A stretch of 64,000 bases of DNA from Peromyscus leucopus. Lineage: Eukaryota > Chordata > Mammalia > Rodentia > Cricetidae. A model generated the notes under the pieces. It worked only from the letters and a program-made list of their open reading frames with translations, was not told where the DNA came from and did not search any database. Shown one piece after another: positions 380-62,194 of the stretch. The DNA is taken from the NCBI RefSeq assembly GCF_004664715.2, contig NC_051066.1:84860736-84924735 (forward strand). The letters are read 5' to 3'. How positions within the stretch are numbered: the stretch's first letter is position 1; every line of letters starts with the position of its first letter. Made by a program: the position numbers and the translations under genes.

Positions 380-553
380 TAGCCACACTTTTATTAATAT
401 TCTCAGTTTCTTCTTTGAATATATACCTGCCTCCTGTCTTAGATTGTTCTTATTACTATAACAAAGATACTTTAAACTGTGTGTCTAATAAATTGCAGAA
501 ATTTATTCTCATGCGAGTTCAGGAAGACCGTGATGCAGATGCTGGAAAATTCA

Positions 554-663
554 GCCAGGTCATGTTGGCACACACCTTTAGTTCCAGCACTCTGGAGGCA
601 GAGGCAGAGGCAGGTGGATCTCTGTGAGTTTGAGGCCATCCTGGTCTACAGAGTGAGTTCCGG
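554..663 (+). mobile_element. B1 SINE, left part, interrupted
   Basis: 7SL-derived B1: the head runs from gccaggtcatgttggcac through ttccagcactctgg and ggcaggtggatctctgtgag to cctggtctacagagtgagtt. It stops abruptly at 663. The missing right part with its A-rich tail is found 1.03 kb downstream at 1692-1753, so a later insertion has split one B1. Confidence 0.9.
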
Positions 664-1005
664 TGCTGTGGGCCGCAGGAATATATCATAAGAACTCAGC
701 AGGTTTTGGCAAAGTCACTACCTAGAGGAATCAGGAAATTCCTCCAGAGGAAGCCAAATCCCAAGGAGTTTTTGGTGTTACTTGGCTTGTTATATATCAG
801 CTGTATGCTGTTACAAAATTTATGTGTGCCTTCATAGTTTTCCCAATTGGCTTTTCCCTAAGAAGGGCTAACAGTGTGGACTGTTCATTCTCTGGACATA
901 CACATTCCAGGCATTTGGAGAACAGCCTCAGGAAAGGCTTTCTCTTGAATCAGATATCTCCCTTAGCCACTTTCAAGGACTACAGGAAACACTGCCCAGG
1001 TGGGT

Positions 1006-11021: not shown

Positions 11022-11880
11022 AATTTATTTATTTATTTTACATCCTAGCTGCGGTTTCCTTTCTTCCTTTCCTCCAAGTCCCTCTCCCCAACCTCCCTCT
11101 GTTCCCATTCCCCAGTCCACTCCCCTCCATTTCTGTTTAGGAAAGGACAGGTCTCCCATGAATATCAACAAAACATAGAATATCAAGTTGCAGTAAGACT
11201 AAATACCTCCCTGTGTATTAAGGCTGGATGAGGTGACCCAGTATGAGGAGTAGGGTTCCAAAAGCCTGTAAAAGAGTTGGAGACAGCCCTTGTTCCCACT
11301 ATTAGGAGTCCCACAAGAGGACCAAGCTACAGAACTGTAATATATACTCAGAGGGCCTAGGTCAGTCCCATGCAGGCTCCCTAGTTGTCGATTCAGTCTC
11401 TGTGAGCCCCTAAGAGCCCAGGTTACTTGATTCTGTGAGTTTTCTTGTAGTGTCCTTGACCCCTCTGGCTCCCACAATCCTTTCTCTCCCTCTTCTGCAG
11501 GATTCCCCTCAAACTATGCCTAATGTTTGGCTATGGCTATGCATCTTTTTGCATCAGTTGCTGGATGAAGCCTCTCTGATGACAATTGGACTAGGCACCA
11601 ATCTATGAGTATAGCAGAGTATCATTAGGCATCATTACATTGACATTTTTTCCCTTCTAGTTGTTTTTGGTTCTTTCCTAGGTCTCTGGGTCATCCAGCC
11701 TGTGGGACCTGGTGCTGCAGGAAGTGTCAGAGCTGAGCTTACTTTCCTGGCATGAGTTTTAGTCTAGAGCAGTCATTGGTTGGGCACTCCCTCAATCTAT
11801 AGGTTACCCTTACCCAGCACATGCCATAGGCAGAACAGACTGTAGGCCAAAGGTTATGTGGACACAGAGTAATCTTTGTA
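11022..11880 (-). mobile_element. LINE-1 3' UTR, 5'-truncated
   Basis: The reverse complement reads as a rodent L1 3' end: gggctgtctccaactctttt, gcttttggaaccctactcct, ccagccttaatacacaggga, then a G-rich purine block and a taaaataaataaataaat tail. No ORF2 sequence is present. The left edge is sharp at the tail; the right edge near 11880 is approximate. Confidence 0.85.
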
Positions 11881-12488: not shown

Positions 12489-12891
12489 AAGAAACCTGAA
12501 TCCAAGTCTGAACCAGGGAGCCTGCATGAGACCAACCTAAGCCCCCTACATATATATGACAGTCGTATAGCTTGGTCTATTTGTGGAACTCCTGACAATG
12601 GGAGCAGGGACTGTCCCTAACACTTGCAGGGTTTTGGTAACCTATTCCTCATACTGAATTGCCTTGCCCAGCCTTAATACAAGCAGAGGTGCTTAGTCAT
12701 ACTGCAATGTGATATGGCATGCTTTGTTGATACCCATGGGGGGCCTGCCCCTTTCTGAACAGAAACAGAAGAGGAATGGATTGGGAGGGGGTGGAGGTGT
12801 GGTGGGGGAGGGAATGGGAGGAGAGGAGGGAGGGGAAACTGCAGGCAGGATATAAAATAATAAAAGAAAAAGAAAAAAGAAACCTGAATCC
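12489..12891 (+). mobile_element. 5'-truncated LINE-1 with perfect 15-bp TSD
   Basis: The insertion body is 12504-12876. It carries L1 3' UTR landmarks: gggagcctgcatgagaccaa, gcccagccttaatacaagca, ggggcctgcccctttctgaa, a G/A-rich block, then a poly(A)-type tail of taaaataataaaagaaaaag form. The 15-mer aagaaacctgaatcc occurs exactly at 12489-12503 and 12877-12891, a clear target-site duplication. A textbook target-primed reverse transcription product 373 bp long. Confidence 0.95.
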
Positions 12892-18553: not shown

Positions 18554-18688
18554 TTTTTCAAGATAGGGTTTTTCTGTACAGCCCTGGAACTTGCTCTGTA
18601 GACCAGACTGACTTCAAACTCACAGAGATCCACCTGCCTCTGCCTCCCGAGTGCTGGGATTAAAGGTTTGAGCCACACTGTCCAGCCC
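18552..18688 (-). mobile_element. B1 SINE
   Basis: Near-complete reverse-complement B1: ggttttttcaagatagggtt, cctggaacttgctctgtaga, cctctgcctcccgagtgctg, ggattaaaggtttgagcc. Good preservation suggests a fairly young copy. Confidence 0.92.
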
Positions 18689-18826
18689 ATTTGTCTTCTC
18701 TTGACAGGAGAAATATCCTCACTTCAATGCAGGAAAAATCAGAGAACTAGGAGACTAGTGGCCAACTAAGAGGCTGCCATTTATGGACAATCTATTACTG
18801 ACTTTGCTTATGTTCTTTAAATTGTT

Positions 18827-21370
18827 AAAAATAAAGAGAATGGAACACCTCCACCCCATGCCATGTGGCTGGGGTAGGTGGGACTCAACTAAATGCAGAC
18901 CAGGGTTTCTAGCCCCGGTCTGCAGAGGACTCCAGCAACATCTTCAGACCAACCAGGAGCCTGCCCAGTGCCCCAGAGGTGCCTGGCAGTTGGACACTAT
19001 TATGATCTCTTTGTGACGAGGAAGAATGGTCCTGCCCAGCACCATGACAGACTGAGTGGGACAAGGGACCCACATGCAGGTCTGAAACAGTTTGCCCCAG
19101 CTCCAAGGAGAAAACATGGGTCCACCTGGCACCTTGTGGTGCCAGGCAGACAGGTAGTATGGTGAGCAAATGTATGGCGTGGTATGTGAGAAAGAGACAG
19201 ACAGAGTGGTTCACAGGACAGGGGCATATCAGAAGAGAGAAAGGTGAGGAGTGGGTTGATGTGGATGGCAATGGTAATGTCTGGGCCTGGGCTGCTGCTG
19301 GGGTCCATGTCTGGGTTCATGGCTCTGATGCAGGTGCTGTCTTTGTTGCTGTTGGTGGCTCCTGATACCACTAAAGGTGGAGTGGATAGGCTGTATAGAG
19401 TAGGCCCCACCCCTCACTAACTCTAGGGAGAACCGGTCCTGCCCTTTACCAGCTGAAGCACTCAGGAGAGAGGGTCCTACACCATGCCTGGGCAGCACAA
19501 TAGAGCTGATCTCCTTCACAGGAGCATGGGCAAGCTGGTCCTGAGGGCATGAGAATGGGAGAGCACGTTGAGCCCTCTCATCTGCTATGTGGTGGCATGG
19601 GTGAGGGAAAGATGGCCTCCTCCCCTCACCACCTAAAGCAGATGGGAGACCTGACCCAACCCCTCATCAGCTGCAGCACTCGGGAGGACAGGCCCTGCAT
19701 CTCGCCTGGGCAGTGTAGTAGACTTGACCCTGTAGACAGGGGCATGGGTGAGCCAGCCCTGAGTGTGTGAGAGGGACATGGCTGGTACTGCCTCCCTCAT
19801 CTGAGGTGCGGTGGTGGGGATGGGGGAAAGATGCCCTCTTCCCTTCCCCCATCATCTCTAGCTGGCAAGGGAACTGACTCTCCACTTTACCAGCTGCAAC
19901 ACTTGGGCCCTGCACCTCACTGGGGTAACAGTAGAGCTGACCCACCCTCATCTGCCATATGGTAGCATGGGAGGGGAAGAGATGCCCTCCCCACCACCCT
20001 TGGGAGGGAAGAGGGTGGGAGAGCTGTCCCTGAGGTCATAAGAGTGGGAGAGCTGCCCCTGCTCCTCCCCAGCGGCATCACCGAGGAGAACAGGCCCTGC
20101 ACCTCCCCTGGGCAGCACAGTAGAGTTGACCCTGTTGGTTGATGTGTGGGTGAACCAGCTCCAAAGTTGTGAGTGTGGGTCAGCTATCCCCACTACTCAT
20201 CTGCCATGCCCTGACATGGGCAGGGGAGAGATGTCCCCCCTTACCCTTTGTGGCCTGTGACAGATGAGGAAGCTGACCTTTACCAGCTAGCACTCAGGAA
20301 AGTAGGCTCTGCTCTTCACTTGGACAGCACAGTAGAGCTGGCCCTGAGTGTGTGAGCGTGGGATAGCTGGCCACCCCCATCTGCCATGTGGTGGAAAGGG
20401 CGAAGGAAAGATGCCCCTACCTCCTTCTCCCCACTACCTGTGGTGAGCAAGGGAACCGATCCTTCCCCTTAGCTGCAGCACTCAGGAAAGTGGGGCCCTG
20501 CGCCTCGCCTGGACAACACAGCAGAGCTGATCCTATTGACAGTTGCGGGTGAACTGCCGAAAATGTGAGCATGGGAGATCTGGCTCTGCCCACTGATCGG
20601 CCGTATGGTGGTGTGGGCAGGGGAGAGATGTTGTCCTCTCCCCTAACCACCCGTGGCTGGTGGGAGGCTGGCCCTGCTCCTCATCAGCTGCACTGCACCT
20701 CGCCTGGGTAACAGAGTAGAGATGGCCCTGATGGTCCAGGTGTGGGAGTGTGGACTCTGACGGTGTCAAGGCAGGACAGCTGGTCCTGACTCTTGCTCAT
20801 TGTTGCAAGGGTTGAACTAGCTGGGGCAGTGCTGAAGGGCTCACCCTGGTGGTGAGGACAAGGGAGAGCTGAAGGGCTGACCAACCCTGCAACTATCCAG
20901 GCCCAGAACCAGGGTTATGAGTCTTCCCACCCCGACATCTACCCAAGCTATGATCTGCGTGAGCACACAAAGGGGCCAGTCCTGCAGACCCAAAGCTGCA
21001 GGATCTCCATGACACAGGGTGTCAACAGGATGCCCAAGAGGAGTCCCAGTGAGGGCCCAGCATAGATAGTGTAGCAGAAACCGGAGGTTTCGAAACAGAC
21101 CAATGACACTTTGCAATGAACACTTGCAAGTAAAGATGTATAGACAAAAGGATTTACTGCGTGGCTCACTATGTCACACTGCAGCTTCCATGATGAGACT
21201 ATTTTTCTTTTTTCCTTTCCTTTTTCTGTTTTCTTTTTTTTTTCTCTTAAATTTTATTTTATTTGGGGGGGGTAGAGTGGCAAAGGCAGAGAGTGGATAT
21301 GAAGGATTGAGATGCATGATGTGAAAGACACAAAGAATAAAAAGAAAGTTAAAAAAAAATAAAGAAAATG
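18827..21370 (+). mobile_element. 2.5-kb composite retroposon with internal VNTR
   Basis: The body runs 18843-21354. It has a unique 5' part, about seven diverged ~200-bp tandem monomers, a unique 3' part and an A-rich end (caaagaataaaaagaaag, then A run). The flanks aaaaataaagagaatg (18827-18842) and aaaaataaagaaaatg (21355-21370) match at 15 of 16 positions, a good target-site duplication, so the block moved as one unit. There are no transposase, reverse transcriptase or gag frames. The 3' words resemble the rodent RMER1 group as I remember it (class 'Other'); that name is tentative. The poly(A) end and TSD indicate L1-type mobilisation in trans. Confidence 0.75.
19451..20720 (+). repeat. 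Degenerate ~200-bp tandem monomers
   Basis: A landmark of the form agctgcagcactcaggaga followed by ccctgcacctcgcctgggca recurs, intact or degenerate, starting at 19451, 19669, 19892, 20071, 20285, 20471 and 20686. Spacings are 218, 223, 179, 214, 186 and 215. Each unit also carries a gtgggagagctg-like and a gggagagatgcc-like word. Copies are diverged by indels and substitutions, so the array is old. It produces overlapping non-coding frames on both strands. Confidence 0.85.
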
Positions 21371-30358: not shown

Positions 30359-32085
30359 TTCTTCTATGTGTGAAGCTCGACTTTTGTGGGGTTTTATTTT
30401 TGTTTTTTTTTTTTAAGCAATTCTTTTTAAATGTAAAAATGATGTTTAGACTCAACTAACCAGTATTTGATTTGCTTCCGAGTTTAAACATTAAGCACAA
30501 AGACTTTGTGTCAGTTAGCTTCAACTACAGGCCAAGAAGGGTATTTCTGATGCAAATTGCACTGGTCTACCTTTTGAGAAATACTGTCCTAGGGGGAAGG
30601 ACTTAAAGAGGTCTGTCTAATAACCACACCTTTTCTTTAACAAGTCAGGGAGCTGAAGTCCAGGGAGATGAGTCTATAACTTGCTCTGAGAGTTTGAGTT
30701 TGGGCTACATAGGGACCTAGCTGTATGTGAGGGGGATGATGGCACCACCCCAGGGAGAGCCAGGAGATGGGAAGAAACAGGAACCCTGATGGTTCATTTT
30801 ATAAAGTGTCCCTGAATGTGGCCACTTCAATGCACTTTCAACAACCTGCCTCCCCTTGGGATTTCAGCCGCTCTGAGTCAGCTTTTCTGGATGCCAGGTG
30901 AAGATGCTGTAATGGGTGCAGCCTCCTCCAGCCGCCAGCCTTCTTTGATCCTCCTCTTTTGAGAGAAATTTCTTTGAAGGAATCTTCTCAAGCCATCACC
31001 CAAATGTTTAATCCTTTAAACGTGCAGACCTTTGTAGTGAACTGGGCAGGACACATGTAACTCTCTGCACACAGAGGCAAAATAGATATAGAGCTGTCAG
31101 CAGGCCAGGCCCAGGACTGGGACATGTGACTTTCAGTCTTGTTTGTATCAGCAAATACCCTAAAAGGGCAGAGTCCCCAACAAACCCTCTGGGACTTGCT
31201 GTCTCACGGGAAATGTCGAGGGGCAGAAAGGGCCATTCCAGGTTTCTTTTTGTTAGGTGTTGTCAGAAGACTAATTGTTAACACTGTTTTCATAACTCAT
31301 CCTCTCACCCTCCCTGTTCACTCACTCTGTCTGTCGCCCTTTTTATTTGGGGTGGTGGTGGGGAAACAAACAAACGTAAAAATGAAAGCATTGACTTTGG
31401 CCAAATCTAGCATTTCCTGGCAGAAATTATACTCCTGAAAAGCTCATATATATTCACAGTTAAGTCAGCAGCCCTCAAAGGTTTCTCTAGGGAGCCTGAG
31501 CATTTCCTTCCAGGTTTAAAGAATGGAGCTGACAACATGAATTTGGGTAGGGGAAAACACATCCAAACCCTCACCATTTATTAATAAATAATAAGGTAAG
31601 CCAATTGAATATTATCAATAACTTTTCAACAGTGTTTTGGTCCATTTAGGGATATAGTTAGCACAAATTACCTGTGTCTGGTACCCCAGCTGGACAGCCC
31701 CCTTCCTGGCAGGAGGATTTCCCTAATTCTGCCTTTAACATGCTGTGACAGGAGACTCGCAGGCCAAGGGAGTTAAAACTCACAGTCACATAGACTTAGT
31801 GTTGCTTGGTTTTTCATAATGCCTGTATTTTTTCTTTTAAACCCTAACGCATTACATGTTCGAAGTGGGGAAATGTAGTAAAATTTAAAACACACAAAGG
31901 CAAGAGGCAGCCACACAAATCACATATAATCCCACAACTCAGAAATGACCACATTGGTTTAAAAACCAACCAACCAACTAACCACACCACAACAAAAAAA
32001 CGCCTTTGACTTCTTTTCTAGTCACCGAAGCAATATATTCTCAGTGCTCTAGCAAACCCTAAAAGAGAAGTTAATCATAGCTAAT
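30359..32085. other. Mostly unassigned stretch
   Basis: A T run lies near 30395-30413, and a possible MER5-like end near 30530-30592 (ttctgatgcaaattgcactg). A weak reverse MIR may lie near 30640-30705. No supported gene. Confidence 0.4.
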
Positions 32086-32304
32086 TCCTCAGCTAATGCT
32101 GCTTCCATGAAGTGCTTTGCTTCCTCAGCTAATGCTGCTTCCATGAAGTGCTTTGCTTCCTCAGCTAATGATGATGCTTCCATGAAGTCCTTTGCTTCCT
32201 GAGCTAATGAGGCTTCCATGAAGTCCTTTGCTTCCTGAGCTAATGAGGCTTCCATGAAGTCCTTTGCTTCCTCAGCTAATGATGCTTCCGTGAAGTCCTT
32301 TGCT
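32086..32304 (-). repeat. Six-copy 36-bp minisatellite, open on minus strand
   Basis: Tandem units start at 32086, 32122, 32158, 32197, 32233 and 32269. Five are 36 bp and the third is 39 bp, with one extra codon-sized insertion. On the minus strand one frame is open through all copies and would encode a 12-residue repeat of the form MEASLAQEAKDF/H. The frame runs from just after a TAG at about 32309 to a stop at 32049. There is no promoter, splice or homology evidence that it is translated. A 36-bp unit keeps any stop-free frame open automatically, so coding is unproven. Confidence 0.9.
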
Positions 32305-32735
32305 ACCTAGCCCGCTGCTTAGCTCTCTTTTGCACTGCTCCCAGGCTCTGTACTTACGAGGGCTGTGAGCTGGTAGAGAGGCTCAGTCATGTTTGCTTTA
32401 GTGCTTTGGAACGATGCCTCCCTGAGGGCTGGACCCAGGAGAAGCAGCATCTCCGACACACAGGGGATACCACTGTCCCTCACTGTACTCAGCAGAATTT
32501 AAACAAGATGTCTGGCACCCTTCCAAAAGGGGTTTCCAGCTAGTGTGAATGCCAGCTGGACTCCCAGGCAGCAACAGGACCCGGGAGGCTGCAGTACTTG
32601 CTGAGTTAGCTGCTGATGCCCTTACACTGTTGGCTGCTTCCCTTTCCAAACCAGTGTTGTTGCCGTTTGTCTTATTAATTCTGCCAGAAACACAGCCACT
32701 CTTCTAATGCCCAACATCCTCTCAATTAATTGCCC
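32305..32735. other. Unassigned stretch
   Basis: A minus-strand 83-codon frame (32649-32398) is Ala/Ser-rich and has no recognised domain. A donor-like GTAAGTA lies on the minus strand near 32350-32356, but no exon can be built around it. Confidence 0.4.
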
Positions 32736-36251: not shown

Positions 36252-36435
36252 GATGCCTGAGCCGGGCGGTGGTGGTGCACACCTTTAATCCCAGCCCTCA
36301 GGAGGCAGAGCCAGGTGGATCTCTATGAGTTTGAGGTCAGCCTGGTCTAGAGAGCGAGATCCAGGAAAGGTGCAAATCTACACAGAGAAACTCTGTTTCG
36401 AAAAACCAACCCCCCTCCCAAAAAAAAGATGCCTG
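36252..36435 (+). mobile_element. B1 SINE, near full length, with TSD
   Basis: Body 36260-36427: gccgggcggtggtggtgcac, acctttaatcccagccctca, ggtggatctctatgagtttg, gcctggtctagagagcgag, then a segment reading atccaggaaaggtgcaaatc and acacagagaaactctgtttc, ending in an A tail. The 8-mer gatgcctg flanks it at 36252-36259 and 36428-36435. The 'ggaaaggtgcaaat' segment is the form I associate with cricetid rather than mouse B1. Confidence 0.93.
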
Positions 36436-39250: not shown

Positions 39251-40359
39251 GTGGGAAAGCTGGCAAGAAACTGAAGAGCTATAAACACGAGAGAGATCCC
39301 CAGTCAAAGATCAAGCAGCTACCCCCCACTAAACTCTATTTTGCATCCTTTGTTTTTATTATTGTCTGTCAATCCACAAAGTCTCTTTCACTCATAAATG
39401 TATGTCCGGCACTTATCTCCATCGTAACAAGCCAATACAAATTTGCCAAAATGAACAAATAAACACAAATACTGCCCAGGATCGAACCCTTAAAAAGGGA
39501 GAATCTGGAACCTGTTCCTGAAGCTCAAGCAACAGCCAGAGAGCGTGATTTTTTTCCTAAGGTCCCCTTGCACTTCTGAGGCAAAGCAGCATAATTCGCG
39601 GCCCTGGTCCTTTGCCAGGACATCAGTGTAACTGATGCGTCCACTGTGGTGAACCTGAGGGCTGATTAAGAGTTTATGTAAATGCTGAAGCTCTTGGCAG
39701 TACTCCTCCCTCTGATTTGGACATGACTCAGGGCAGGAGAAGTTTTCAGAGAACGAGCTTTGAGAGAATACCCACCCGCAATGGTGGAAACCTTAGAAGA
39801 AAGGACCACAGAGGAGCACACCTCATCAGGGATTAGGGGATGCTGGGCAGGTTTTCAGAGGCATATGGAGGCAAGATGTCAGTATGACCTTGCTTCTCTA
39901 ACAGAATCTGAAATGCGTTTTAACCAGTGAGTTCCTAAGCAGCCTTTAAGCAGAGAGGACAGCATGGCAGGTTTATAAAGAGATGGAGGGTTGGGATGAC
40001 TTCTTCCTGGTTCCTGTGAGAGCACCATGGGAAGAGGAAATCAGGTCTTGGGTCAGTCGCTTCCATGCTCTTTCTGTCGTGTAGATCAGCGAGCAGGAGG
40101 CACAGGAGCACTGGATGAAGAGGCTGGAGACTTCCTCCAGCCTTACCTAGTCCTGGCCTTCTGACCTTGTCTCTGAAGAGACTGTGACCCTAGCAAAATG
40201 TATCAGCCATTTTCAGTCACAGTTTCCTGGTCTGCTCAGTAAGACTAAAACAACCCCTGTCCATTCTTTTATAAAACTATCTTTTAACTATGGTAGCTCA
40301 AACTTATCTAGCCTTTGCTGTGTCAGCCCTTGTATAACCTGTCCGGCTTCACAGGAGAC
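39251..40359. other. Unassigned non-coding stretch
   Basis: No transposon recognised and no coding evidence; any function would need conservation data. An AP-1-like tgactcag lies near 39724. Confidence 0.4.
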
Positions 40360-40445
40360 AAAGAAAATCTAGCCGGAGAACATCCGGCTAACAGTGGTGC
40401 AGCTGGGATTCGAACACAGGCTGCTTAGCGTGGGAGCCAGATCTA
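40360..40445 (-). mobile_element. MIR 5' end, reverse
   Basis: The phrase gtgcagctgggattcgaaca, then caggctgcttagc and gggagccagatc, is the reverse of the MIR tRNA-like end. Confidence 0.55.
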
Positions 40446-40473
40446 ATGGGTATGTTGTTATTCTCCTGCCTTC

Positions 40474-40667
40474 AAGTGGTTCTCAACCTTCCTAATGCTG
40501 GTGACCCCAAACCATAGAACTATTTTCATTGCTATTTCATAACTGTAATCTTGCTACTGTTGTGAATCGTGATGCAGATATCTGTGTTTTCCAATGGTCT
40601 TAAGTGACCCTGTGAAAGGGTCGTTTGACTCCCAAAGGGGTCTCGACCCCCAGGTTGAGAACAACTG
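40474..40667 (+). mobile_element. URR1-like hAT-Charlie MITE
   Basis: Terminal inverted repeats are visible: agtggttctcaacctt at the left and, reversed, cagttgttctcaacctgg at the right. Interior words cctaatgctggtgacccc, gtaatcttgctactgttgtg, gtgaaagggtcgtttgactc and aaggggtctcgaccccc match the rodent URR1 group. No transposase. The 8-bp flanks (40466-40473, 40668-40675) are not convincingly identical. Confidence 0.8.
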
Positions 40668-40854
40668 CTCTAAAGAGGGCCCTAAGAAGAAGAAACCCCA
40701 GCTGTTTGGCAGCTGATCAGGATCTCAACAAGTCTTCAGCGGACAGGAGGAGGGTACAGTAGTTAGGAAAGGGTGATAGTACGCGTCTATGGTAATTGTT
40801 TCCCCAGAAGATGAGCTTGCATTTTTTATGACTAGTATTAGAAAATGAAAATGT

Positions 40855-40918
40855 ATAGACTCTGACCTTGGAGACAGAGATAGGTTTGAATCCAGGCTTG
40901 ACCACATGATTCCTGATT
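40855..40918 (+). mobile_element. MIR 5' fragment
   Basis: ctctgaccttggagacagag followed by ataggtttgaatccaggctt resembles the start of MIR. Confidence 0.45.
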
Positions 40919-41639
40919 GGAATATTTCAATTCCCTTAAAAAAACAAACAAACAAACAAAAACGAGGAGTATTAAGGTTGTGAGGGCTGTATTTGGGTTA
41001 CACCGGATGTGTGGTGTATGTGTGGGTCATGCTCGTTTTTTCAGATTCACTTCCTGCAGTGTGATTCATTTTCCTTATCTGTTAGTCTGAGCCAAACCAC
41101 CATTTCTAGAGTTTAGGTTAGGGTCTGAGCGCCATTTCAGTGATGACCTGAAATGGACAAGGAACATGGGGGCCAGTGGGTACCATTCACGTTTCCTGGA
41201 CACCTGAGCTTTAGGAGTTTGAAGGACTCAGCTAGGAAGTTAAGGACCTTATGAGAGCTTCTATCCAAGAAGCACAATTTCTGGGGAGCCAGAAGACAAA
41301 TGCAGGGAATCCACAGGGCTCCCTGCCGTCATCTATCAGAGAATCATGACACAAAGTCCAGCCAGAGCCACAAAGAACTGAATCTGTGTTGAATGACAAA
41401 ATAGTAAAGATGCACAAATACCCAAGGTAGATCCACGTGACCCGAGCTGACAGAGAAGACGGTACTGGGTGTATGAGTCCCAGATGATTTAAAACCAGGT
41501 GGTGTTTCAGGCATTTGGAAGACATCCAGATAAAACTTGGGGTGCCCTGGACATTCAGGAAGGAATTCTACATTGTACAGGAAGGAGAATTGACTGATTT
41601 TTGGTCCCTACTCATAATTAAAGATAGTGGTATATATTG

Positions 41640-41825
41640 GACAGTTAATGTGGGCTGGAAAGTGTGATCATACACTCTCCTTTAATCTCTGCAACAGTCC
41701 TATAATGTAGGGGACTGCTTTTCCTACCTCACTGATGGAGAAACTGGGGCTCAGGAATATGGAATGACTAACTCTTGGTTAAGTAGCCCTAAGCAGAAGC
41801 CCTGGAGCACTTATGCTTTATGGCT
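41640..41825 (-). mobile_element. MIR fragment, reverse
   Basis: Reverse MIR order: ctttaatctctgcaacagtc, ctataatgtaggggactgc, gatggagaaactggggctca, then a degenerate end. Confidence 0.55.
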
Positions 41826-41971
41826 TGGCTTCCTCCCAGCTTTCTTGGCTCCTAAACTTCCTGTATCCTCTTCTTTTTCATCCCAGCCTCACTGGTGAGG
41901 TCCTTGAAAACTCTTGTAGTCTAACTGGTACCAGACGATTTTATTCACTGTCCTTTTTTCTCTACTTGTAG

Positions 41972-41972
<1 letters not shown>

Positions 41973-42017
<45 letters not shown>

Positions 42018-42454
42018 TGTGTGTGTGGTGTGTGTGTGTTATGTGTTGTGTGTCTGTGTGGTGTGTGGTGTGTTATGTGTTGTGTGTCTGTGTGGTGTGT
42101 GGGTGGTGTGGTGTGTGTGTTATGTGTTGTGTGTCTGTGTGGTGTGTGGTGTGTTATGTGTTGTGTGTCTGTGTGGTGTGTGGGTGGTGTGGTGTGTGTG
42201 TTATGTGGTGTGTGTGTGTTATGTGTTGTGTGTGTATGGTGTGTGTGTGTGTTATGTGGGGTGTATGTGCAGTGTGTGGTGTGTGTGTGTGTGTGTGTGT
42301 GTGTTATGTGTTGTGTGTCTGTGTGTGTGTGTGTGTGTGTTATGTGGTGTGTATGTGTGGTGTGTGGTGTGTATGTGTGGTGTGTGTGTGGTGTGTGTGT
42401 GTGTATGTGTGTGTTGTGTGTGTGTGTTGTGTGTGTTTTTGTGTGTTTGTGTGG

Positions 42455-42485
<31 letters not shown>

Positions 42486-42517
42486 TGTGTGGTGTGTGTG
42501 TGTGTGTGTGTGTATGT

Positions 42518-42558
<41 letters not shown>

Positions 42559-42916
42559 GTGTGTGTGTGTGTGTATGTGGTGTGTATGTGTGGTGTGTGG
42601 TGTGTGTGTGTGTGTGTGTGTGTGTGGTTGTGTGTGTGTGTGTGTGTATGTGTGTGTGTGTGTGTGTGTGTGTTGTGTGGTTGTGTGTGTTGTGTGTGTT
42701 GTGTGTATGTGTGGTGTGTGTGTGTGTGTGTGTGTGGTGTGTGGTGTGTGTGTGTGTGTGTGTGGTATGTGGTGTGTGGTGTGTGTGTATGTGGTGTATG
42801 TGTGGTGTGTGTGTGTGTGTGTGGTATGTGGTGTGTGGTGTGTGTGTATGTGGTGTATGTGTGGTGTGTGTGTGTGTGTGTGTGGTGTGTGGTGTGTGTG
42901 TATGTGGTGTATGTGT

Positions 42917-42995
<79 letters not shown>

Positions 42996-42999
42996 GGTG
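41973..42999 (+). repeat. Giant interrupted (GT)n array with higher-order repeats
   Basis: About 1.03 kb of GT-rich sequence broken by TTATG, GG, TATG and CTG interruptions. An 81-bp unit is tandemly duplicated without mismatch at 42039-42119 and 42120-42200, itself a 34+47 bp structure. A second unit of 59-61 bp recurs three times from 42764, 42823 and 42884. All three forward frames stay open for about 330-380 codons of Cys/Val-rich sequence and the reverse frame is His/Thr-rich. These are artefacts of a repeat lacking TGA, TAA and TAG, not genes. Possible Z-DNA-forming tract. Confidence 0.98.
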
Positions 43000-43262
43000 T
43001 TTAGGCCAGAGGAGCATATTGGGTGTCCTGCTTCGGGACTCTCTACCTTATCCCCTTGAAATAGGGCCTCTCATTGACCCAGGGTTTGCTGGTGTGCTGA
43101 ATTTTAGTTAGGCTAACTGACTAGGGATCTCCTGATCCAACTTCTTCTGCCACCTTTAGAGCTACGCTTCCAGGTGCACACAGCCATGCCTGGCCTTTAT
43201 GTGGGTCTTCAGGATCTGAACTCAGGTCCTCATGCTTGCTTTCTTCCTCACTGAACCATTTT
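43000..43262 (-). mobile_element. Dimeric SINE abutting the GT array
   Basis: ttaggccagaggagcatatt, cttgaaatagggcctctcat, gctaactgactagggatctc, cacacagccatgcctggcct, ggatctgaactcaggtcctc and a degenerate head end. Same family and orientation as the copies near 13.6, 23.8 and 56.1 kb; the GT array occupies the place of its usual GT tail. Confidence 0.65.
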
Positions 43263-44966
43263 GTGAGTTCTTAACAAGTAGCCAGTGTGCTCCTCACATT
43301 CTGGTCCCTTTAGAGGGGCCTCTCCAACCAGTATTAGACTGTCAAGGGTGAGCTTGTGGGTGCCTCACAAATGTGACCCATCTGCAGACTGATGGTGTTT
43401 CAGGACAGACCCTTGAGACTATATCATTCTACTTTCACTGAATAGTGTGCTTGTCCACCAAGAAGTCTTCTGCTTTGACACTTATCCATGGTCTTCAACA
43501 TTTAGCCCAGTGTTCTGAAGGTAGACTGTGTGTGCCACGGCTTTTATAGATGCCTACTCAAGATTGTGTGAGTTCTTCCATGAGGCCACATGAGGTAGGA
43601 AGGTGGGATTCTCTTTTATTGGATTGCAAACATAAGACTTAGTCCGTTTTCTCAAGGTCTTGGGCTTGGATAAAACTTCAGGAATGCCCCCCTGCTCTGT
43701 CCTGTCCTCCCTTCGCTAGGGGTCTGGGGACCTGTTTTGAGATCAACTCAGTCATAGAGGGATGTAGAGGACAACCCCTTCCTTCTACCCCACTCACTCC
43801 ATATATTTACTTTTGATGTCCAGCACATGCCAGAGAGTGTTCTATTCACAGATGGCCTGAGATAGCCCCTGTGTCAGTAGACCCTGCAATCTCCCAGGGT
43901 AGTTACAACTAGCAGTATGATATGATAGATTGTCTCATCAAGGAAGTTGTAGGTAGTATAAATGAAACACTCTCTAATGAAATCGTGGAAGACTTCTTGG
44001 AAGAAGTAAAAACCAAACTATGACCACACGAACAAAAGTCAGTAGGGAGGGAAACTTTCCATGAATTATGCTAATTGAGGTTTGGGAATTTTCTTATGCC
44101 AAACGGGATAGTCACATTCAGTGTGTATATCAGGCCTGTGAAAAGATGTAAGAGGAAGAGGGGGAATCAAATTTAAAACTCATGCTTAAAATTAAAAACC
44201 AAACAATCTGAGCTCTCTTTCTTTCTCATCTTCAGTCTCTGAAGATCTGACTGCATAGGGTGCAGTTCTCTGAGCTCTGGCTGATACCAGCAAACAAGAG
44301 CATATTAAAAAATCGGTCACCAAGAGGTGGAGAGAAACGAAGCCTCATTGCATGAGGCCTGAGTTCCTTCTGAAAGGCGTAGAGCCACAGGCAGGGAAGA
44401 CTTGCCTCCTGTCTAGTAATCAGCAGGTACCACCCTTCTCCTCTTTGCATACACGTTCCACACGGACTGCCCTAGCGATGACTCAGAGGCATTAATAGCA
44501 TGACCACTTGTGCGGCTCACAGATTAGGCAACCACGCCAAGAGTCTGTTGTGTTGAAGGGGCTCTGGGTAGGAAGCACTCCGGGGCAGGGTCTGACTTGC
44601 CAGGGGAGGTTTGCAGAGTGTGCAGACTGTGACTCACGGAGGTCTGCGATGAATAAATAGTTCTTTCTGCTGTGACTGGTGACAGCATTGGTGACAGCTC
44701 ACCTTTGCAGTTGCCAAGGAGAATCTGACTGGTTTTTGACAAATTCAACTCTCCTGAGCAGCCAGGCCCTGCAGCGGGACCACCGTGAACAAATGCCTGG
44801 CCAAACCCAAAGGGTGATGAAGGAAGGGTCAGTATTGGTCAGCAAGCCAGAAGACCAAATCTCTCCTGCTCGCCAAGGAAAAGTATCACTGCATGGGGAG
44901 GCTTCGCAGAAGGCAGCCTTGCGTTTCCAGGGTTGAGGGTGGGAGGGGTCTCCACATGCATCGCCT
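43263..44966. other. Unassigned non-coding stretch
   Basis: No repeat recognised. Two AP-1/MAF-like words (gatgactcagag near 44477 and tgtgactcacgg near 44628) lie about 150 bp apart in a moderately GC-rich part. This is too weak to call regulatory. Confidence 0.4.
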
Positions 44967-52129: not shown

Positions 52130-52321
52130 GATTGAGACTATTTTGTTTGTTTGTTTGTTTTTCATTTTTTGAAACAGGATTTTTCTGTGTAACTGTTCTG
52201 GCTGTCCTAGAACTCCTTTCTTAGACCAGGCTGGCCTTGAACTCAGAGATCTGCTTGCCTCTGCCTCCTGAGTGCTGGGATTAAGTGCTTTTACCACCAT
52301 TGCCCCTCCTCGATTGAGACT
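52130..52321 (-). mobile_element. B1 SINE with 10-bp TSD
   Basis: Body 52140-52311: a GTTT-rich tail side, ttgaaacaggatttttctgt, ctggctgtcctagaactcct, gaccaggctggccttgaact, gcctctgcctcctgagtgct, ggattaagtgc. The 10-mer gattgagact flanks it at 52130-52139 and 52312-52321. Confidence 0.93.
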
Positions 52322-52544
52322 TTTAAAATTAAATTTACTTATAAAATGCAGTTAAACTATCTGAGGAATATAACTCCTTAAGTCTGTAAATATAACCAGC
52401 CACTACAGAACTCTTTAAAAGTGCCTTGTTGATTGAATATTTAATAAAATAAAGTTTGTAGGCTGAATAGAAAAACAGAGAGAAAATACACATTAAGATT
52501 TATAACTTATAAGTGAATGATTAGCTTAAAACTGCAGGTTAAGG

Positions 52545-53035: not shown

Positions 53036-54007
53036 ACCTTCATTGCTCTGTTTTCACTCACTTCTTTGCAGCACTTGTTTGATTTTGATCAAGATTTGGT
53101 CATTAACCTTCTGTGTCTTATTTGACTGCTTGCCTCTGCTCAGCTGCTTACCTTGTAGTCTAGGATGGGGTAAAACATAGAGGAACTCAATACACGTATC
53201 AGATTCAAAAGGCCGCAGCCCTAACTCCTGAGGAAGGATGGCTGGTTGATATTGAGTTGAAGAGAATGTCATCTTCTGTGCCCCTGTTGAGTTTTAAGAG
53301 AAGTTGAGCTGCAGCCTTGGACTTGAGAGGTTCGTACTGTCCAGATATGACTGCCTATAAGCCCTGTGCTGTTAACCATATTTTACTGTTGGACTCCATG
53401 GGTATTCATCTCCCTGCTCTCAGGAAAAAGGGGCACCTCCTCTGCTCAGCAGAGCCCATGTGGTCTAGCCCTGACCACCTCTGTGGTCTATCCCTGCCCA
53501 CCTCTGCTCTACCTGCTCTGAGGACACTGGCTTTATTTAGTTCTTTGACCACACAAGGTCTTCTTTAGATATGGTCTGGTCCCATTTTGGTCACTTCTGG
53601 GGCTCCTTGAGCATCTCCTTCAGGCACTTCCTAGGATACATTTTTACTTGTAATTGTGCAATATCTGCCTCATGTGGAAAGCCTTTTAGTTCCACGTGCC
53701 TTGCCCACTTTGTTCATCGTGAGTAGGGGCTTAGTAGGGGCCTGTTTTTATTTTTGTTAATGTTAGCACTCAGTACTTATTTGTTGCTAAGACGGGTGAA
53801 AGAATGGATGTGTGGCTCTCAGCTTTCTTATGAGCTTTTGGACTGGCTGGCTCTCCATTCAGCCAGGAGGGATTTTAGATGAAATTTTATCAGACAGATA
53901 GGGGACATGATGTCTGTGATTCCTTCCAGGCCAGTGAGCCTTTTCCTTCAAAAGGGCTTTTTGTCACTTTGCTTTAGCTGTTGCTTTTATCTTTATTATG
54001 GAGAGCT

Positions 54008-54009
<2 letters not shown>
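53036..54009. other. Unassigned non-coding stretch
   Basis: No recognised repeat or gene. A small internal duplication of the form ctgtggtctatccctgccca versus gtggtctagccctgacca lies near 53460-53510. Confidence 0.4.
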
Positions 54010-54072
<63 letters not shown>

Positions 54073-54077
54073 CTCTG

Positions 54078-54166
<89 letters not shown>
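54010..54166 (+). repeat. (CT)n-(GT)n-(GA)n compound tract
   Basis: CT repeats (54011-54076, one CCT interruption), then GT repeats (54078-54098), then GA repeats (54098-54166). The CT and GA blocks are reverse complements of similar length separated by ~22 bases of GT, so either strand or an RNA could fold into a hairpin of about 60 pairs. The Ser-Leu/Arg-Glu frames are artefacts. Confidence 0.98.
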
Positions 54167-58200: not shown

Positions 58201-58344
58201 TCAACTGCCTCTAAAAACTAAGACTAGGTTTACCCAGAATTCTTTCATTGTAGATAATTTTTACTGATTTCTCTTACATTATCTTATATATTGATCAAGA
58301 ATGTTATCAGCTCTTTTGTTTAAATGTAAATAACAATAAAAATT

Positions 58345-58527
58345 TAGGTGGTGGTGGTCCATGCCTTTAATCCCAGCACTTGGAAGGCAAAGGTAAGTGG
58401 ATCTGTGAGTTCTAGGCCAGCCTTGTCTACAGAGTGAGTTCCAGGACAGTTAGAGCTACACAGAGAAACTGTCTCAAAAACCAACCAACCAATCAACCAA
58501 CCAACCAACCAAACAAACAAAACAAAA
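58345..58527 (+). mobile_element. B1 SINE with (CAAC)n tail
   Basis: aggtggtggtggtccatgcc, tttaatcccagcacttggaa, tgagttctaggccagccttg, acagagtgagttccaggaca, agctacacagagaaactgtc, then a CAACCAAC microsatellite tail (58483-58527). Head slightly truncated. Confidence 0.92.
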
Positions 58528-58950: not shown

Positions 58951-60337
58951 AATTATCACGATACAGAAAACTTGCTATAGAGTAATCTAATCCTTATATT
59001 CAATAATTTCTAATAGGCATAATTTCTGCTGGCATAATTGTCATTTTGTTAAAATGGGTCATTCTTCACATCTACTTTTACTAATGACGCATCTGTAGAT
59101 TTCTGAAGCATAAGTTAATTAGAGACTGTAAAGAAATATCCAGGTGATTTTTGTTCCTTGTTTTCTGCTTGAGACATTTGAACCTCTCAATTGTCACTCC
59201 TTAAAAATGCTGATGAATTCTTGAGACCCACCTCTCTCGGTATTTTTATCTCTCACACCATAAATACATGTTTGCATATATGAATGTATGTACATACATA
59301 TATTCCTTATTTGTGGCTGGAAACTCCCCAACTTCTCTTCAGTCTTGCAGGCTCATAACAAGCCCATGATATCTCATTTGAGCCTGAGCTGCTGAGAAAT
59401 GTCAGCTCATCCAAGGCCACTAGCTCAGCCTCAGAACTGTGATCGAAGGTCTTAGTTCAGAAGAAATGAATTGATGGTCCTGTCTCAGATGATACTATTG
59501 ATGGAGGACTCAAATTGCCCAAGTTGACTCTTTGTTTCAAATTCAATGAAATATGGGGACTCCAGCCCTCACCTCCCACCCCAAGCCATCCTTCTTGATG
59601 GAAGTGTCAGGGGCCTTCTGTTTGAAAATCCAACTAGTGTGGACCCTTACAATAGAGACAGAGCATACTCTGAGAGAGGTGATATTTACCATGAGCAAAA
59701 TGGAAGTTGTTGGAAAGTCCCTGCTTATTTAAAGTCCAGGGGCCAGATTTTGAGATAAAAACAATCTTAAAAAAAAAAAAAAGTCCTCTGTCCACAAATA
59801 AGCATTTAGTGAGGATCCAGAGCATGAGCACTGTGGTACAAGTGTGGCCTTTACAACCATTGTCCAAACTCAAATGTCAGTCTTGGAGAGGACAAGGATG
59901 TGGTTGGGACAAGATCTATGTACATATTTAGATACAAAACTTTAACAGTTGGTAACAGCAAAGTGAGATCACCTTTGGGTGTGGAAAAAGACAAATACAA
60001 AGGGGGAAATTTACCTAAGAAAATTCATTTCTTATTAGCAACATCAACATAAGGATCTAAAATTATAGAATGTGTTCCAAAGATTTAACTCTGCGAGAAT
60101 ATTCAATGGATAGATAATTTACATAACTTATCCATGACATGGAACTGCACATATAAACATACACATACACATAGATGGAGACTATCTCCACTAACCAGAT
60201 CAATATACTGTGTACACAAGCCAGTAAGACTCTCTCTTCATTTTCCACAGTTGGAGCAAGAGACAGTTAATAGATATACTGGTAAGTAGCACATTTTTTT
60301 CTTAAAAAGGCAATAACAATGATCCCCAAAAGTTGAC
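58951..60337. other. Unassigned non-coding stretch
   Basis: No recognised repeat or gene. An A run lies at 59769-59782. Short frames only. Confidence 0.4.
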
Positions 60338-60675
60338 TGCAGGTGGATTTTTTTTTCATCAGGATTACTGGCTCCCCAGTAATGACATGGAGACTTATCA
60401 TTAATTATAAAATCTTGGCCATAGCTTAGCCTTGTTACTACCTAGCTCTTACAACTTAAATTGACCCACTTTTGTTAATCTATATATTGCCACATGGCTT
60501 GTGGTTTTACCTGTCCTCTAGCATGTCTTGTTCCCTCTGAGTCTCCTGGCATTCTGTGTCCGGCTATACTGCCTATACCTCCTGCCTAGCTAATGGTTGT
60601 GCTTTTATAATTAATAATAAGTCCCCATGTCATTACCGGAGAGCCAGCAGTCCCAATGAAAAAAATCCGCCTACA
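60338..60675 (+). repeat. ~70-bp inverted arms around a 194-bp centre
   Basis: The left arm (60338-60410) and the reverse complement of the right arm (60605-60675) align from the termini through a T run (9 versus 7 Ts) to the shared taatgacatgg and ttaattataa words. In the 54 positions after the T run I count 46 matches, and all 8 differences are transitions. The segment itself has TG...CA ends. In RNA the arms would form a long stem, G-U pairs absorbing some of the transitions. Confidence 0.85.
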
Positions 60676-60677
60676 AA

Positions 60678-60699
60678 TGGTGCCTCATGTTGAACACCA
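60678..60699. promoter_or_regulatory. Primer-binding-site-like palindrome
   Basis: 22 bases beginning TGGTGCC and ending ACACCA. Read on the minus strand, its first 18 bases match the tRNA-Lys1,2-type retroviral primer-binding site at 13 of 18 positions, all five differences being transitions. The plus strand also starts with TGG, directly after a CA-ended segment and two A bases, so either orientation is possible. Confidence 0.5.
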
Positions 60700-60706
60700 G
60701 AAGAAG

Positions 60707-61001
60707 TGTTTATCTAATTATTCTTTATCAATAAAAACTTGGGAGTCAGATATCGGGGTAAGAACCTGAATGATCAGAGAAGTAGCGGAGAAGCAACCAG
60801 TGACCTCCTCTCTCTCTTGTTCCTTGATCCAAAAGGGGCCGAGACTCTCTCTAAGCCCCATCCTACTACTTCCTGTCTCTCTATCTGTCCTCAGTGCTCC
60901 AAAACCTCAATGGTTAATTTTGGTTAGCTAGTAGCTAGCTCCACTCTCTGATTCAAAGCAAACTTTATTGTGATTTATTGTGATCAAAATACCACACAGC
61001 A
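60707..61001 (-). mobile_element. LTR-like segment
   Basis: On the minus strand it starts TGCTGTGTGG and ends AGATAAACA, i.e. TG...CA, and is followed after 7 bases by the primer-binding-site-like palindrome. AATAAA-type words occur near its minus-strand start (caataaatcacaataaag). Its length, 295 bp, is typical of a rodent LTR. No matching second LTR is present in the window. Confidence 0.55.
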
Positions 61002-62194
61002 GTTGATTCTATTGAATTTTTGTGAAAACAGGAAAGATTCATTCAGGTTTGTTTCCCTTCCCCCCATCTTCACCTATTACCTTGTTAGGCTTTTAGTCCA
61101 CAAAGAATATCACTAACTCACTTTTGACTCTGACCTCCAGAGAATGAGAACTAGAAACTCTGGAAAGAGTTTCTGCTCAAAGTAGTAGAAATATAAGCCT
61201 GTTTGCTTGTTCCTTGGTTATTAACAAGAGCATTCCAGTTCATTCCAGTCTGTCTCTCTAGATTTGGAGTGTTTCACATGAAAGCAAGGGTGATGTTGCA
61301 GTGGCAGCCAGGAGGCTGAGTGGCCCATGGTGCTGGTGAGGTGGTAGGACCGGGCCATAGTGTGCTTGGTGGATCCTTTAAAAGATCTGGTTTTTTGGTT
61401 GTTTGTTTTTGACAAGGCAAAGGGATGCCATGAAGGAGTTTAGGGCCAGAGAGTGACAGGATTTGATGTGTGAATTTTCAGATCATCCACACCAGCTGCT
61501 TCATGTAGTTAACACATTGGAAGGACTAATGGCTTCAGGGTAGCCTATCTGATGAGATCTCAGACTCTTCCCAGTTGCCAGACATTGGACAGTGATATAC
61601 ACGGGAGGGAAGAGTTAAGGACATGGAGAGTACCACTTAATGGATAAGGTAATTGAGTTTCTTTGCATCTAGGAAGCCAGTCTGGAAGGAGAGAGTAATA
61701 TGTTTCAGTAACTGTAAACCACAAAGGAAAATCCTCCCCATGGAAGATAAGGATAGTTAAAAAAAAAAAAAAAAAAAAAAAGAGCATCCAGGCTAGTGCC
61801 AACCTGGCTCTGTTGCTGCTAGTTAACATCAAGATACTGCATCAACAACATTAAGTTTATTAATTTGTAGAACAACTACACAATGATTTTCCAGTGTGTG
61901 GAGAGACTCTGATTAGAAGAGATGAGGCTGAAGCCAGAGTTCCTGACAATGAGATCTTAGAGTAGAAATCAATGAACACATGAATAAAAACAACAGCAAA
62001 AAAACAATTTCAGTCAGTGATAAGGAGTGGGAAGGGATAAAAAAGTGCTTGTTAGAAGGGCCGCTGTAGGGGCGAGCTGTCTGTGGACTCTTACCAGTAA
62101 TCCAGGAAGCGTTTCTGGGAAGATGACTTTTGTACTGAGATAAGAAGGAAACAGACACGAACAGATCTGGGGTAGGGAATACACCTGCCTCATG
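61002..62194. other. Unassigned stretch with an A run
   Basis: A pure A run lies at about 61760-61781. The phrase gccagagagtgacaggattt near 61444 may belong to the same ancient repeat as 62195-62500. No supported gene. Confidence 0.4.

What the first reader, a model, noticed from the sequence alone, without database searches (positions are those of the whole stretch)
60338..61001. LTR-type composite with long inverted arms next to a primer-binding-site palindrome
A 664-bp block with TG...CA ends and gttgac/gttgat flanks contains two back-to-back TG...CA segments meeting at a 22-bp TGG...CCA palindrome that resembles a tRNA-Lys primer-binding site on either strand. The left segment has ~70-bp inverted arms, far longer than usual LTR termini, and in the aligned 54 bases every arm mismatch is a transition. 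This could be a non-autonomous LTR element whose RNA carries a long stem beside the primer site, for packaging or priming, or two elements joined in opposite orientation.
Basis: partly seen in the sequence, partly recalled or inferred. Interest (0 to 1): 0.75.

Follow-up and report, generated by a model that had tools for sequence, protein, structure and literature searches.

The report
Old two-part rodent LTR relic
This is probably an ordinary, decayed remnant of a retrovirus-like element in which two LTR-like pieces, one shaped like a long hairpin, flank a worn tRNA-lysine priming site; whether the two-part form is a family or a single accident could not be tested.

Summary
The sequence facts hold in part. 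The left segment (60338-60675) has inverted arms of about 89 nt ending exactly at TG/CA, far beyond chance; in the outer 75 bases all ten substitutions are transitions. A PBS-like site lies between the segments, best on the minus strand (60699 to 60682): 13 of 18 to the tRNA-Lys1,2 PBS, all five mismatches transitions. The plus strand gives 11 of 18. The '22-bp palindrome' is weak: 6 of 11 pairs. The 6-bp flanks match 5 of 6 for the whole block and not for either segment alone, but about 5% of such searches would give that by chance. The segments are not homologous, so this is not a normal two-LTR element. Best reading: an old, noncoding, lysine-primed LTR relic on the minus strand, joined head to head at the PBS to a second, hairpin-shaped LTR-like unit, probably inserted once. 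No second copy could be examined: the genome search did not complete in all 14 attempts, no Dfam and no collection of animal genomes was on hand, and the other collections searched gave nothing. Recurrence, family and any use of the stem remain untested. Interest is low.

The parts
60332..60337 (.). left flank GTTGAC, putative 6-bp target-site duplication
   Evidence: 5 of 6 match to 61002-61007; the left segment alone gives 2 of 6 and the right segment alone 1 of 6
60338..60675 (.). left segment, 338 bp, TG...CA, LTR-like and hairpin-shaped
   Evidence: TGCA...TACA ends; RNA fold z -10.5 on plus and -13.9 on minus against 100 shuffles each
60338..60426 (+). left inverted arm (89 nt)
   Evidence: pairs with 60588-60675 at 80% over 90 columns
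60588..60675 (-). right inverted arm (88 nt)
   Evidence: pairs with 60338-60426
60678..60699 (.). 22-nt imperfect TGG...CCA palindrome
   Evidence: 6 of 11 pairs, the outer five and one inner
60682..60699 (-). decayed primer-binding site for tRNA-Lys1,2, read on the minus strand
   Evidence: 13 of 18, all 5 mismatches transitions; the only minus-strand site with 5 or fewer mismatches, one other exists on the plus strand but is not all-transition; 0 of 30 Markov windows hold an all-transition site
60700..60706 (+). GAAGAAG: spacer between the LTR-like end and the PBS on the minus strand; a weak purine run before TG on the plus strand
   Evidence: read directly; with the A before it 8 purines, and runs of 8 or more occur 289 times on the plus strand of the window
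60707..61001 (-). right segment, 295 bp, TG...CA, LTR-like; 5' LTR in the minus-strand reading
   Evidence: TGTT...AGCA ends, no detectable homology to the left segment on either strand
61002..61007 (.). right flank GTTGAT, putative target-site duplication

Best explanation
The block is an old, noncoding LTR-retroelement relic of the tRNA-Lys1,2-primed kind, read on the minus strand: an LTR-like unit (61001 to 60707), a 7-nt spacer, a decayed Lys1,2 primer-binding site (60699 to 60682), and then a second, unrelated LTR-like unit (60675 to 60338) in head-to-head arrangement. Proposed origin (inferred): during reverse transcription of two different lysine-primed element RNAs in one particle, the newly made end of one, which stops at the PBS copied from the tRNA, was joined to the PBS end of the other, helped by the partial self-symmetry of that site. 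The product had proper TG...CA integrase ends on the outside and was inserted once, leaving a 6-bp duplication. It probably does nothing now (inferred). Shown: the anatomy, the arms, the PBS match and its better strand. Inferred: single insertion, the joining route and the age.
For: The minus-strand PBS match has only transitions, as decay would leave (0.023 such sites expected per window, 0 of 30 Markov windows), and it falls in the short gap between two TG...CA segments. The arms end exactly at TG/CA. The flanks match 5 of 6 for the whole block and only 2 of 6 or 1 of 6 for the parts alone. The two segments are not detectably homologous. Four of the six surviving pairs of the 22-mer are its outermost four, TGGT/ACCA, which lie outside the symmetric core of the Lys1,2 PBS, as two opposed PBS starts would leave. 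Composite LTR insertions by template switching, with a target duplication given for at least one, are described in Triticeae (PMC1950507, abstract and passages). In one cricetid, the deer mouse, ERVK elements are abundant and largely nonautonomous (PMC10089650, section 7).
Against: The flank match is modest: 23 of 4525 CA sites in the window are followed by a 6-mer that matches as well, and 10 CA sites lie near the right end, so about a 5% chance. The PBS has 5 of 18 mismatches; 21 of 30 Markov windows hold some site with 5 or fewer mismatches of any kind, and the window itself holds a second one. A Met PBS does nearly as well, 6 mismatches on either strand. Pfam found no family in the ten frames tested, there is no clear polypurine tract, and no second copy was found in the window. 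The joining route is inferred from the junction alone. That both segments are independent LTR families rests on recall, not on any call.
Confidence: 0.42

Rival explanations
1. The 664 bp are one solo LTR, or a short nonautonomous element, of a known rodent ERVK-type family whose sequence simply contains the hairpin and a PBS-like stretch.
For: TG...CA ends with one flanking 5-of-6 duplication; [quoted passage not shown]
Against: A PBS normally lies outside the LTR; here it sits mid-block next to internal TG and CA ends.
Confidence: 0.28
2. Two unrelated proviruses inserted near each other in opposite orientation and a later deletion joined them at their primer-binding sites.
For: Head-to-head order with the PBS at the junction.
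Against: The outer flanks should then not match; they match 5 of 6 (about 5% by chance), while neither segment has its own duplication. Under this rival the inner flanks would be lost, so their absence is no evidence against it.
Confidence: 0.15
3. A nonautonomous element whose RNA uses the long stem beside the PBS for packaging or priming.
For: The stem is the dominant fold on both strands; for the left segment alone it is stronger on the minus strand, the PBS strand (z -13.9 against -10.5).
Against: For the whole block the z-score is weaker on the minus strand (-6.0) than on the plus strand (-8.5). No homologous second LTR; the excess of G-U-keeping changes is not significant (8 of 10, p = 0.11; 8 of 13, p = 0.58); inverted arms fold by construction.
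Confidence: 0.1
4. The left segment is a foldback or MITE-like DNA transposon that landed beside an LTR.
For: Long inverted termini around a 338-bp unit.
Against: No 6-bp target duplication for the left segment alone (2 of 6; other lengths were only read by eye); the termini are TG...CA and lie 2 nt from the PBS-like 22-mer.
Confidence: 0.05

Closest known systems
Class II (ERVK/ERV2-type) rodent endogenous retroviruses and their nonautonomous derivatives, such as mys/mysTR and MYSERV
   Same: TG...CA ends, 6-bp target duplication and lysine-type PBS (these two recalled as typical of the class), noncoding
   Different: No coding region, no matching LTR pair; sequence membership not tested (no Dfam or Repbase)
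Template-switch composite LTR insertions of Triticeae (PMC1950507, abstract and passages)
   Same: Fusion of two parent elements then inserted as one unit; a passage seen gives GCATG as the duplication of one of them
   Different: In that model the outer LTRs end up identical; here the outer units are unrelated and head to head
TRIM-type minimal LTR elements (recalled)
   Same: Very short, LTR - PBS - LTR order
   Different: The two LTR-like units are not homologous
2-LTR circle junctions (recalled)
   Same: Two LTR ends brought together
   Different: There the LTRs meet directly in the same orientation; here a PBS lies between opposed units

Membership tests
LTR retroelement (ERVK-type) | TG...CA termini | tested here: met
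LTR retroelement (ERVK-type) | 6-bp target-site duplication | tested here: inconclusive
   5 of 6 match; about 5% by chance given 10 candidate CA sites
LTR retroelement (ERVK-type) | PBS just inside the 5' LTR | tested here: met
   Lys1,2 PBS 13 of 18, all mismatches transitions, 7 nt from the LTR-like end on the minus strand; decayed, and a Met PBS gives 6 mismatches
LTR retroelement (ERVK-type) | Two homologous LTRs | tested here: not met
   segments not homologous on either strand, scores 14 and 12 against a 95% point of 16 in 200 shuffles
LTR retroelement (ERVK-type) | Clear polypurine tract before the 3' LTR | tested here: inconclusive
   only a run of 8 purines on the plus strand, one of 289 runs of 8 or more on that strand of the window; before the left unit in the minus-strand reading none was seen by eye
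LTR retroelement (ERVK-type) | Sequence match to a curated LTR family | not testable with these tools
   no Dfam or Repbase; genome search unanswered in 14 attempts (last)
TRIM-type minimal element | Identical or homologous short LTRs | tested here: not met
Foldback/MITE DNA transposon | Target duplication around the inverted-arm unit | tested here: not met
   6-mers beside the left segment match 2 of 6; other lengths not computed
Template-switch composite | Fused elements flanked by one target duplication | tested here: inconclusive
   whole block 5 of 6; parts 2 of 6 and 1 of 6

The most novel reading that the evidence does not exclude
A heterologous head-to-head LTR composite born by joining two different lysine-primed cDNAs at their primer-binding sites, made possible by the self-symmetry of the Lys1,2 PBS, and then integrated as one unit; if it recurs, a family of 'PBS-joined' mobile LTR pairs that leave a long hairpin RNA next to the primer site.
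Probability: 0.12. Interest if true: 0.5.

Novelty: new member of a known kind. Interest (0 to 1): 0.2.

Why it matters
If the joining route is right, it would be a fossil of a specific reverse-transcription error, with the join marked by the PBS, and would show that a normally short-lived intermediate can be integrated. Otherwise it is one more decayed LTR relic, and long inverted arms alone are no sign of function.

Tried and rejected
Copies elsewhere: none in the window beyond the block's own arms (the next best hit has E = 0.12). Five pattern scans of viral contigs, two of genome contigs, and distant DNA searches of plasmids, phages and E. coli genomes gave no match; none of these collections is meant to hold rodent DNA, so this says nothing about copy number. 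Protein homology search was not used, as the block is noncoding. Rfam on the window: no match at gathering thresholds. tRNA genes: none by ARAGORN, bacterial code, so the PBS-like site is not part of a predicted tRNA gene. Pfam: 10 frames picked by hand, all of 125 codons or more, out of 147 stop-to-stop frames of 80 or more codons (26 of them of 125 or more, counted), had no family at E 0.01; 16 frames as long were not tested. Other tRNAs: 8 PBS sequences were compared near the junction and over the window, and Met and Ile at the two 18-mers of the site; Lys1,2 on the minus strand was best, Met next with 6 mismatches, one a transversion, on either strand.

Rejected: compensatory evolution in the arms (not significant); polyadenylation signals as a guide to orientation (AATAAA lies near the start of the right segment on both strands).

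Literature: searches on composite, chimeric, inverted or palindromic LTRs and on palindromic primer-binding sites listed 2, 6 and 12 papers; judged by title and start of abstract, none is on this element. Searches listed general rodent or solitary-LTR papers, 15 shown each of more. Six letter strings like the block, none of them exactly from it, were in no paper of the library. Only open-licence PubMed Central papers are covered. Papers seen: PMC10089650 passages and section 7; PMC8437802 passages; PMC8775094 one passage; PMC1084362 one passage and section 7; PMC7472051 two passages; PMC1950507 outline, abstract and passages.

Corrections: my notebook entry calls the PBS site unique at 5 or fewer mismatches on both strands. 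That is wrong: the plus strand holds one such site elsewhere. What holds is that it is the only one on the minus strand, and the only all-transition one on either strand.

Full report
What is there. The block 60338-61001 has TG at its left end and CA at its right end, with flanks GTTGAC and GTTGAT. It consists of a left segment 60338-60675 (338 bp, TGCA...TACA), AA, an imperfect 22-nt TGG...CCA palindrome 60678-60699, GAAGAAG, and a right segment 60707-61001 (295 bp, TGTT...AGCA).

The arms. The ends of the left segment pair as inverted repeats over about 89 nt: 72 identities, 13 transitions, 2 transversions, 3 gap columns, local score 52 against a maximum of 17 in 500 shuffles of two-letter blocks. 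Pairing begins exactly at TG/CA: the 20 nt outside match at 4 of 20. Of 57 inverted pairs found in the window (arms at most 1000 nt apart, the 25 longest shown), this is the longest shown that is not simple sequence. The segment folds far better than shuffles on both strands: z -10.5 plus, -13.9 minus, 100 shuffles each; the right segment does not, z -1.1 and -0.6. The whole block gives z -8.5 plus and -6.0 minus on 20 shuffles each. Of 13 transitions, 5 leave a G-U pair in plus RNA and 8 in minus RNA; in the outer arms 8 of 10 favour minus. Neither departs from an even split (p = 0.58 and 0.11), so there is no evidence of selection on the stem.

The primer-binding site. The 18-letter PBS for tRNA-Lys1,2 was checked in two papers (PMC8775094, passage; PMC1084362, passage and section 7). 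On the minus strand, 60699 to 60682 matches it at 13 of 18 and all five mismatches are transitions. It is the only minus-strand position in the window with 5 or fewer mismatches; the plus strand holds one elsewhere, which is not all-transition. Sites with 5 or fewer mismatches of any kind are common in Markov sequence (21 of 30 windows), but all-transition sites are not (0 of 30; 0.023 expected per window). On the plus strand the match here is 11 of 18, one of 35 plus-strand sites that do at least as well. A Met PBS gives 6 mismatches on either strand, one of them a transversion. So the minus strand is the likelier sense strand and Lys1,2 the likelier primer, but neither is certain.

The palindrome. 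Only 6 of 11 pairs of the 22-mer form, a level reached by 2583 of 63979 22-mers in the window. Its five outer pairs are perfect, as in 116 of 63979. The published Lys1,2 PBS is itself symmetric at 6 of 7 pairs in its last 14 letters, which helps to explain a resemblance on both strands; but in the block most of those inner pairs are broken, and four of the six surviving pairs are the outermost TGGT/ACCA, outside that core. Those four pairs are what two opposed PBS starts would leave; by chance four given letters agree once in 256.

One insertion or two. The 6-mers beside the whole block match 5 of 6; those beside the left segment alone match 2 of 6 and those beside the right segment alone 1 of 6. 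This favours insertion as one unit, but 23 of 4525 CA sites in the window are followed by a 6-mer matching as well, and 10 CA sites lie between 60950 and 61050, so the chance level is about 5%.

What it is not. The two segments are not detectably homologous on either strand (scores 14 and 12, 95% point of 200 shuffles 16), so the block is not a normal element with two LTRs nor a TRIM. The left segment has no 6-bp duplication of its own, against a DNA foldback element. Ten of 147 frames of the window (80 codons or more) were tested and had no Pfam family; retroviral genes elsewhere in the window are not excluded.

How it most likely arose. I favour a head-to-head joining of two lysine-primed LTR ends at the PBS during reverse transcription, followed by one insertion. 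Composite LTR insertions made by template switching are described in Triticeae (PMC1950507, abstract and passages), although in that model the outer LTRs end up identical. In the deer mouse, a cricetid, ERVK elements make up over 75% of lineage-specific ERV sequence and the most abundant subfamilies are nonautonomous; recombination that replaced internal sequence is proposed there (PMC10089650, section 7).

Limits. The decisive test, a search for other copies, could not be made: the genome search did not complete in 14 attempts, and the other collections searched are microbial or viral. The block has no second copy in the window.

Verdict. Real anatomy, ordinary kind, uncertain assembly. Interest 0.2; the PBS-joined composite as a confirmed or recurring mechanism has probability 0.12 and would merit about 0.5.

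Noticed in passing
window 41974-42994: Imperfect GT array of about 1 kb (TRF score 1254); the 40001-44000 bin has GC skew 0.279 and AT skew -0.269.
   Followed up: no
window 32085-32308: 36-bp tandem repeat, 6.1 copies, lying almost wholly in a minus-strand open frame 32052-32306 whose translation repeats EAKDFMEASLA-like units.
   Followed up: no
window 19403-20792: Strongly diverged self-similar stretch, about 58-65% identity at offsets of about 211, 442, 620, 802 and 1023 bases, as from an old tandem array of about 200-bp units.
   Followed up: no
window 11024-11386 and 12511-12869: Inverted pair of about 360 nt at 74.5% identity; looks like old LINE sequence by recall only.
   Followed up: no
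window 553-669, 18572-18749, 36258-36411, 52138-52372, 58287-58504: Mutually similar stretches of roughly 100-230 nt on both strands, among others; SINE-like by recall.
   Followed up: no
window 54006-54166: A CT run followed by a GA run, giving up to 58 perfectly complementary bases.
   Followed up: no
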